DNA of 46,402 nucleotides from Candidatus Nomurabacteria bacterium GW2011_GWA1_36_15. GTDB taxonomy: Bacteria > Patescibacteriota > Minisyncoccia > Phycocordibacterales > UBA9973. The translations under genes were made by a program, and so were the position numbers. The stretch covers positions 1-46,402 of the forward strand of contig LBRM01000015.1 of the NCBI GenBank assembly GCA_000991415.1, read 5' to 3'. A model generated the notes under the pieces. The model saw only the letters and a list, made by a program, of their open reading frames with translations, made no database searches and was not told the DNA's origin. Shown here piece after piece: positions 19,103-20,669 of this stretch (positions within the stretch are counted from its first letter, which is position 1; the number at the start of each line of letters is the position of its first letter).

Positions 19103-19136
19103 AAGCCGCCTATGCTTTAGCTACGGCGAGCCGAAG
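19103..19136. repeat. Palindromic element in the 5' leader of the zinc-ribbon gene (family D)
   Basis: AAGCCGCCTATGCTTTAGCTACGGCGAGCCGAAG; CGCC/GGCG and GCT/AGC pairing; related to 37491-37524. Confidence 0.6.
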
Positions 19137-19145
19137 AAAAATCAT

Positions 19146-19331
19146 ATGGAATTAAAAGCTTTATGTATGAAGTGTAGAGATGCTAATAGAAAGCCAACCA
19201 TGCAGACGATGACAAACCCTATCGTTACAAAGAATGACAAGGGACGATATTCAGCTAAGGGTACTTGTGCTAAGTGTGGAGGCAATATGTTTAAGTTTCT
19301 TTCTCAAGCAGATGCAGAGAAATTGGGCTAA
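19146..19331 (+). CDS. Small zinc-ribbon protein (DUF5679-like)
   Basis: CMKCRDANRKPTMQTMTNPIVTKNDKGRYSAKGTCAKCGGNMFKF; extended -10 TGCTATAAT at 19074-19081. Confidence 0.65.
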   Translation: MELKALCMKCRDANRKPTMQTMTNPIVTKNDKGRYSAKGTCAKCGGNMFKFLSQADAEKLG

Positions 19332-19355: not shown

Positions 19356-19415
19356 ATGGCAAAAGGAGACGGGCATAGAAAAGAAAAAAAGAAACCAAAA
19401 AAGGCAAAGAAATAA
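19356..19415 (+). CDS. Very small basic peptide MAKGDGHRKEKKKPKKAKK
   Basis: 20-codon ORF directly downstream of the zinc-ribbon gene; resembles short conserved KEKKKPKK-type peptides. Confidence 0.45.
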   Translation: MAKGDGHRKEKKKPKKAKK

Positions 19416-19452
19416 TCAACAAGGAAAAACTTTGACCTATTTTGCTTAAATA

Positions 19453-19541
19453 AAAAAAGACTTCATAAGTTTGGGTACAAATGAAGTCTAAATGGGTTTA
19501 GAGGAGTAAATAGTGAGGGGTACTATCCTTTTTTTATTTGA
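19453..19541 (+). ncRNA. Possible small structured RNA between 19415 and the metK promoter
   Basis: AGACTTCAT...ATGAAGTCT 9-bp hairpin, then AGGAgtaaATAGT/ACTATCCT pairing followed by a T7 tract; TTGACC/TAAATA-like promoter upstream. Confidence 0.3.
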
Positions 19542-19639
19542 TTTTTATCTAAAAGAACAATACTTATTTACCTGTATAGTATATCATACCTTGTTTAATT
19601 TGTCAAGTAATAAAAAAAAGATATTATGATACAATAGAA

Positions 19640-19733
19640 ATACAAATAAATAGTTTATATCAAGAGTGGTGGAACCCTCCTTCATTAAAACTACGGAACG
19701 GAGAACGAGAATTGGGAGGAATTTTTATTTTTT
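19640..19733 (+). promoter_or_regulatory. Structured metK leader, candidate SAM-responsive element
   Basis: AUAUCAAGAGUGGUGGA resembles the SAM-I 5' core; CCCUCC 19675-19680 complements the SD GGGAGG 19714-19719; alternative hairpin CUCCUUC/GAAcGGAG. Confidence 0.45.
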
Positions 19734-20669
19734 ATGCAAAAGACAGCAGAATTTGTCAGTCCCAAACATCCGGATAAAATTTGTGATTTTATTGCGGATA
19801 GTATTTTAGACGCTTATTTAGAAGGTGATAAAAACAGTCATGTAGCCATAGAAGTAATGGGCGGACATAATTTAATAACCATAAATGGCGAAGTAACTTC
19901 GAAATCGAAACCGGATGTTGAAGCTATAGTAAAAAAGATTGTGGGTAATGATTACAAAATTATTTCAAATATAGCTTTGCAAAGTGCAGAAATTAAACAG
20001 GGAGTAGATAAGGGCGGGGCGGGAGACCAAGGAATTATGAAAGGTTATGCCATCTCGAAGACGAACACTTATATGCCTCTTGAATACGAATTAGCCAGAA
20101 ATTTATGCCAGAAAATATTTGAGGTATATCCTCATGACGGAAAAACCCAAGTGACCATAGAAGGAAATAAAGTTATCACTGTGGTAGCGAGTTTCCAAAA
20201 TACAAAGAATGAAGAACTTTTAAAACTGGTAAAAAGTATTATTAAAGCAAACAAATATTTGATAAATCCGGCGGGAGAATGGAGACATGGCGGGTTTGAT
20301 GCAGACACGGGCTTATCCGGGAGAAAGCTGGTTATAGACAGTTATGGTCCTGAGATACCCATTGGAGGCGGTTCCTTTTCCGGCAAGGATTATACAAAAG
20401 TAGATAGGTCTGGTGCTTATATGGCCCGTAAAATTGCAGTTGATTTATTAAAAAAGAATAAGGCGAAAGAAGTTTATACAAAACTTGCCTATGCCATAGG
20501 TAAAAGTGACCCGGTCATGGCGGTAGCTGTGATAGACGGGATAGAGGAAAAAATTACCGGTTATGACCTTAGTCCTCAAGGAATATATAAGTATTTAAAA
20601 TTAGGTAAAGTGAAATTTGCTGACACTTGTATCTGGGGACATTTTGGTAGAGGTTTTGAATGGGAATAA
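19734..20669 (+). CDS. metK: S-adenosylmethionine synthetase (compact, 311 aa)
   Basis: FVSPKHPDKICDFIADSILD, GAGDQGIMKGYA, GGFDADTGLSGRKLVIDSYG, GGGSFSGKDYTKVDRSGAYMAR. Confidence 0.95.
   Translation: MQKTAEFVSPKHPDKICDFIADSILDAYLEGDKNSHVAIEVMGGHNLITINGEVTSKSKPDVEAIVKKIVGNDYKIISNIALQSAEIKQGVDKGGAGDQGIMKGYAISKTNTYMPLEYELARNLCQKIFEVYPHDGKTQVTIEGNKVITVVASFQNTKNEELLKLVKSIIKANKYLINPAGEWRHGGFDADTGLSGRKLVIDSYGPEIPIGGGSFSGKDYTKVDRSGAYMARKIAVDLLKKNKAKEVYTKLAYAIGKSDPVMAVAVIDGIEEKITGYDLSPQGIYKYLKLGKVKFADTCIWGHFGRGFEWE

What the first reader, a model, noticed from the sequence alone, without database searches (positions are those of the whole stretch)
19597..19734. metK leader with a SAM-I-like 5' motif and two mutually exclusive pairings that could switch SD access
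Seen: metK has a promoter-like TATGAT/TACAAT (19625-19635) and then about 95 nt of leader, whereas most genes here appear leaderless. The leader contains AUAUCAAGAGUGGUGGA (19657-19673), matching the 5' conserved stretch of SAM-I riboswitches. The rest of the SAM-I core (GGGACUGGCCC..., GGUGCUAAUUCC) is not recognisable. CCCUCC (19675-19680) is fully complementary to GGGAGG (19714-19719), the only SD-like sequence before the ATG. The same CUCC can instead form CUCCUUC (19677-19683) with GAAcGGAG (19696-19703). Inference: a minimal or divergent SAM-sensing, or otherwise metK-autoregulatory, RNA acting on translation.
Basis: partly seen in the sequence, partly recalled or inferred. Interest (0 to 1): 0.75.

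Follow-up and report, generated by a model that had tools for sequence, protein, structure and literature searches.

The report
Broken SAM-I riboswitch before metK
The stretch in front of the SAM-synthetase gene metK is the front half of an ordinary SAM-sensing riboswitch that took up a short palindrome and then lost its ligand-binding half and terminator in a deletion of about 100-120 bases, so the gene has probably lost SAM control.

Summary
Related Nomurabacteria carry canonical SAM-I leaders before metK (Rfam RF00162, up to 73 bits). Two of them, L059 (genome G037) and L092 (G014), have a full SAM-I aptamer plus the same ~31-nt palindrome in the P2 arm that the window has. Aligned to L059, the window matches through the promoter-proximal leader, P1 5' strand, J1/2, P2 5' strand, palindrome and P2 loop (AATTGG). 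It then jumps straight to the 3' arm of the old terminator (GGAATTTTT), which now serves as the Shine-Dalgarno (SD) region. Missing are 91-127 nt (121 against L059): P2 3' strand, P3, J3/4, P4, P1 3' strand, antiterminator and terminator 5' arm. The window scores 7.6 bits with a clade-specific SAM-I model, against 40.8 and 45.9 for the palindrome-bearing relatives. No other SAM-I was found in its genome. It is predicted only weakly, vanishes when 30 nt of coding sequence are included, and cannot be tested for conservation. Most likely metK is now expressed without SAM control: a modest, well-documented case of riboswitch erosion.

The parts
19628..19635 (+). extended -10 promoter element TGATACAA/T (TACAAT at 19630-19635)
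   Evidence: sequence; aligns with TATGCTATAAT-type elements at the same distance before the aptamer in relatives; no good -35 hexamer at 16-18 nt from this -10
19644..19657 (+). conserved pre-aptamer stretch AAATAAATAGTTTA (ACAANTAAATAG in relatives); probable 5' end of the transcript nearby
   Evidence: multiple alignment of leaders; transcription start inferred, not mapped
19658..19672 (+). SAM-I remnant: P1 5' strand, J1/2 and P2 5' strand (TATCAAGAGTGGTGG)
   Evidence: exact match; aligned with L059, L092, L063, L104 and others
19675..19705 (+). inserted palindrome in the P2 arm (CCCTCCTTCATTAAAACTACGGAACGGAGAA, boundaries to within a few bases)
   Evidence: same insert at the same place in L059/G037 and L092/G014, absent in other leaders; hairpin -5.7 kcal/mol here, -9.9 in both relatives
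19707..19715 (+). SAM-I remnant: P2 terminal stem 5' strand and pseudoknot loop (GAGAATTGG)
   Evidence: alignment with L059 and others
19715..19716 (+). deletion junction (to within 1-2 bases): 91-127 nt present in relatives are missing here, 121 nt against L059
19717..19733 (+). 3' arm and U tract of the ancestral terminator (AGGAATTTTTATTTTTT), now the SD region of metK (GGGAGG 19714-19719)
   Evidence: alignment; the same arm pairs with TTCCTC/TTCCTG in many relatives; no terminator found here
19734..20669 (+). metK, S-adenosylmethionine synthetase, 311 aa
   Evidence: Pfam N, M and C domains; up to 84% identical to Nomurabacteria homologues; dN 0.13 against dS 1.35-1.89

Best explanation
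The metK leader is a SAM-I riboswitch broken in this lineage. Its ancestor had a SAM-I aptamer with a transcription terminator / SD-masking platform. A short palindrome entered the P2 arm next to the kink-turn, as still seen in two relatives. A single internal deletion of about 100-120 nt then fused the P2 loop to the 3' arm of the terminator (shown by alignment). With the SAM pocket, P1, antiterminator and terminator stem gone, the leader should neither bind SAM as SAM-I does nor terminate. metK is then read from the retained extended -10 promoter and translated from the leftover AGGA/GGGAGG SD, without SAM feedback (inferred).
For: 15 of 80 same-genus genomes hold SAM-I above the Rfam cut-off, and 14 of 16 metK loci scanned score above it. 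L059 and L092 carry the same palindrome in a full aptamer and score 40.8 and 45.9 bits with model R1, built without them, against 7.6 bits for the window. Alignment scores far exceed shuffles. The deletion is defined against seven leaders. Many relatives can form an antiterminator (GGAAAGATA with TATCTTTCC) and a terminator (TTCCTC with GAGGAA, then T6) that share a strand; the window has no terminator. No SAM-I hit elsewhere in the genome at E up to 10. metK itself is constrained.
Against: Only one genome shows the deletion, so an assembly error cannot be excluded. Loss of control is inferred; no expression data. CCUCC:GGAGG could still modulate translation.
Confidence: 0.87

Rival explanations
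1. The shortened leader has become a new, simpler regulator: the palindrome's CUCC pairs either with its own GGAG or with the SD, and a ligand, temperature, protein or small RNA shifts the balance.
For: CCUCC:GGAGG (5 pairs plus U-G) and the competing hairpin both exist; for the leader alone the SD pairing has probability 0.50. A window-specific C and the junction together extend the match.
Against: SD pairing falls to 0.04-0.05 with 30-60 nt of coding sequence; fold z-score +0.91; the hairpin is weaker than in relatives; the leader DNA gave no second similarly shortened leader in 397 genomes of the order, so there is no conservation or covariation to support it.
Confidence: 0.08
2. A still-working minimal or divergent SAM riboswitch.
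For: The SAM-I 5' strand is intact and the gene is metK.
Against: The 3' half of the aptamer is deleted; no SAM-clan Rfam match; 7.6 bits with the clade model.
Confidence: 0.02
3. Assembly artefact: the genome really carries a complete SAM-I with palindrome and the contig lost about 120 nt.
For: Draft genome of 22 contigs; palindromic stretches can trouble assembly; only one genome shows the deletion.
Against: The window has its own further changes in the palindrome that weaken the hairpin, as expected for relaxed constraint; I saw no long direct repeat at the junction in L059 that would drive a collapse.
Confidence: 0.05

Closest known systems
SAM-I / S-box riboswitch (Rfam RF00162) upstream of metK
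   Same: Location, promoter spacing, P1 5' strand, J1/2, P2 5' strand, P2 loop and the terminator 3' arm/SD are homologous to those of relatives.
   Different: P2 3' strand, P3, J3/4, P4, P1 3' strand, antiterminator and terminator 5' arm are missing; no SAM pocket.
SAM-I leaders with a P2 palindrome in L059 (G037) and L092 (G014), Candidatus Nomurabacteria
   Same: Same palindrome at the same place (18-nt core CCTTCRTTAWAACTACGG).
   Different: Those two keep the whole aptamer and terminator; in L059 a 211-aa reading frame of unknown kind also lies between the riboswitch and metK.

Membership tests
SAM-I riboswitch (RF00162) | covariance-model match above the gathering score (44.4 bits) | tested here: not met
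   No match in the window or own genome at E up to 10; 7.6 bits with clade model R1
SAM-I riboswitch (RF00162) | conserved 5' strand of P1, J1/2 and P2 | tested here: met
   TATCAAGAGTGGTGG exact at 19658-19672, aligned with relatives
SAM-I riboswitch (RF00162) | four-helix junction with P3 (GCAACC...GGUGCUAA) and P1 closed by GAUA | tested here: not met
   segment deleted; SAM binds at the four-helix junction that includes P1 (PMC3656099)
SAM-I riboswitch (RF00162) | kink-turn in P2 and pseudoknot of the P2 loop with J3/4 | tested here: not met
   the 3' strand of P2 and J3/4 are deleted; K-turn conservation from PMC2258182
SAM-I riboswitch (RF00162) | expression platform switching with P1 | tested here: not met
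   no terminator; the 5' arm present in relatives is missing
SAM-I riboswitch (RF00162) | specific SAM binding | not testable with these tools
   needs in-line probing or calorimetry
other SAM-clan riboswitches (SAM-III/SMK, SAM-IV, SAM-VI, SAM-SAH) | Rfam covariance-model match | tested here: not met
   Rfam scan of 19400-19900 to E = 10 gave only a chance snoRNA hit elsewhere

The most novel reading that the evidence does not exclude
After losing its SAM pocket the leader was re-used: the inserted palindrome's CCUCC and the SD formed at the deletion junction make a new translational switch for metK built from riboswitch debris.
Probability: 0.07. Interest if true: 0.6.

Novelty: new member of a known kind. 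Interest (0 to 1): 0.3.

Why it matters
It shows the steps by which a riboswitch can be lost in a reduced Patescibacteria genome: intact SAM-I, SAM-I with a palindrome in P2, then a deletion that keeps promoter and SD. It also warns that a perfect 5' riboswitch motif can be a relic. If metK really runs unregulated here while sister genomes keep SAM-I, the pair is a natural experiment on how much SAM feedback matters to such bacteria.

Tried and rejected
Rfam scans of the whole window and of the leader to E = 10 found no SAM-clan match, and RF00162 found nothing elsewhere in the genome. A search for other shortened leaders with the leader DNA in 397 genomes of the order (which left out G037 and G014) gave only short partial matches; an exact search of viral contigs gave none. 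The idea that the palindrome is an abundant repeat of this genome was not supported: one exact and one near copy. The idea that it was inserted once in a common ancestor is not supported by the metK tree, where L092 groups with insert-free L094, but support around the window is weak. The reading frame between riboswitch and metK in L059 looked HNH-like by eye, but Pfam gave no significant match. Paper searches found no account of SAM-I loss or SAM-I in Patescibacteria in the library.

Full report
The window lies in a 617-kb draft genome (22 contigs, 96% complete) from a genus of Patescibacteria; the nearest named metK homologues belong to Candidatus Nomurabacteria. metK at 19734-20669 is a 311-aa SAM synthetase with the three Pfam domains, up to 84% identical to relatives, and evolving under constraint (dN 0.13, dS 1.35-1.89).

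TATCAAGAGTGGTGG occurs once without mismatch (19658-19672) and GGGAGG precedes the ATG. The stated pairing CCCUCC:GGGAGG is not fully complementary when read antiparallel; shifted by one base, CCUCC (19676-19680) and GGAGG (19715-19719) form five Watson-Crick pairs plus one U-G. The pairing is predicted with probability 0.50 when the leader is folded alone and 0.04-0.05 when about 30-60 nt of coding sequence are included. The leader as a whole folds no better than shuffles (z +0.91).

Rfam shows no SAM-family RNA here or elsewhere in the genome. The same genus does carry SAM-I: 15 of 80 genomes above the gathering score. Of 16 metK loci from named genomes, 14 score above it, up to 73.4 bits; the two that do not are L059 and L092, which hold the palindrome. 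A model built from 27 SAM-I leaders without these two and without the window gives L092 45.9 bits, L059 40.8 bits and the window 7.6 bits.

The alignment is decisive. L059 reads AAATAGTTTATATCAAGAGTGGTGGAATCCTCCTTCGTTAAAACTACGGACGGAGAACGAGAATTGGCTCG...; the window reads AAATAGTTTATATCAAGAGTGGTGGAACCCTCCTTCATTAAAACTACGGAACGGAGAACGAGAATTGG and then GAGGAATTTTTATTTTTTATG. In relatives AATTGG is followed by 91-127 nt (121 in L059, 106 in L092) before GGAATTTTT or GGATTTTTT. That segment holds the 3' strand of P2, P3 (GCAACC...GGTGCTAA), J3/4, P4, the P1 3' strand (GAAAGATA) and the 5' arm of the terminator. Local alignment scores are 125 (L059) and 99 (L092), against shuffle maxima of 30 and 26.

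The relatives' platform is readable: in many of them GGAAAGATA can pair with TATCTTTCC (antiterminator), while TTCCTC or TTCCTG pairs with GAGGAA or CAGGAA followed by about six T (terminator, which also covers the SD). This fits the standard SAM-I scheme in which SAM-stabilised P1 lets the terminator form (PMC3656099). The window keeps only the terminator's 3' arm and T-rich tail, and no terminator is found. Standard SAM-I control therefore cannot operate. That metK is now expressed without SAM feedback is inference.

The palindrome has the form of a short hairpin repeat. Variants (CCCGCCTTCGTTAAAACTTCGGCGGG) occur elsewhere in the genus, but in this genome there is only one near copy besides the leader. 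It sits in P2 close to where SAM-I has its conserved kink-turn (PMC2258182). In L059 the opposite strand of that region is also shortened (CTCG--CACC against CTCGGCGACC), so the insertion may have weakened the aptamer before the deletion. That is inference. In the metK tree L092 groups with insert-free L094 and L096, not with the window, though support near the window is weak. Two insertions at one place, exchange between lineages, or loss in L094 are all possible.

Several riboswitch-less metK genes in sister genomes have a -10-like element directly before the ATG (for example L078, L084, L096; seen by eye), so complete loss of the leader seems to have happened elsewhere. The window looks like an intermediate state with promoter and SD kept.

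Limits: the deletion is seen in one draft genome, reads were not available, no start site is mapped, and SAM binding was not tested. A new use of the leftover leader is possible but has no support beyond one short complementarity.

Noticed in passing
19455-19606, minus strand: Candidate small RNA divergent from metK: promoter-like TTGACA-17-TATACT with TG (19606 to 19578) and a hairpin AGACTTCAT...ATGAAGTCT followed by seven T. Relative L063 has a similar promoter stretch (28 nt, 86%) and its own hairpin with T tract. No Rfam family.
   Followed up: partly
L059:2360-2995: A 211-aa reading frame without a significant Pfam match lies between the SAM-I riboswitch and metK in genome G037.
   Followed up: partly
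L064:2776-2901 and L068:2819-2944: Other palindrome-like stretches sit in different arms of SAM-I (P4 in L064, P3 in L068), so riboswitch stems in this group seem to tolerate such inserts.
   Followed up: no
19105-19140: Palindromic CGCCTATGCTTTAGCTACGGCG just upstream of a 61-aa DUF5679 reading frame (19146-19331), of the same general form as the leader insert.
   Followed up: no
L092 and L094: L092 has the P2 palindrome but its metK groups with insert-free L094, which suggests repeated insertion at the same place, exchange of leaders, or loss.
   Followed up: partly
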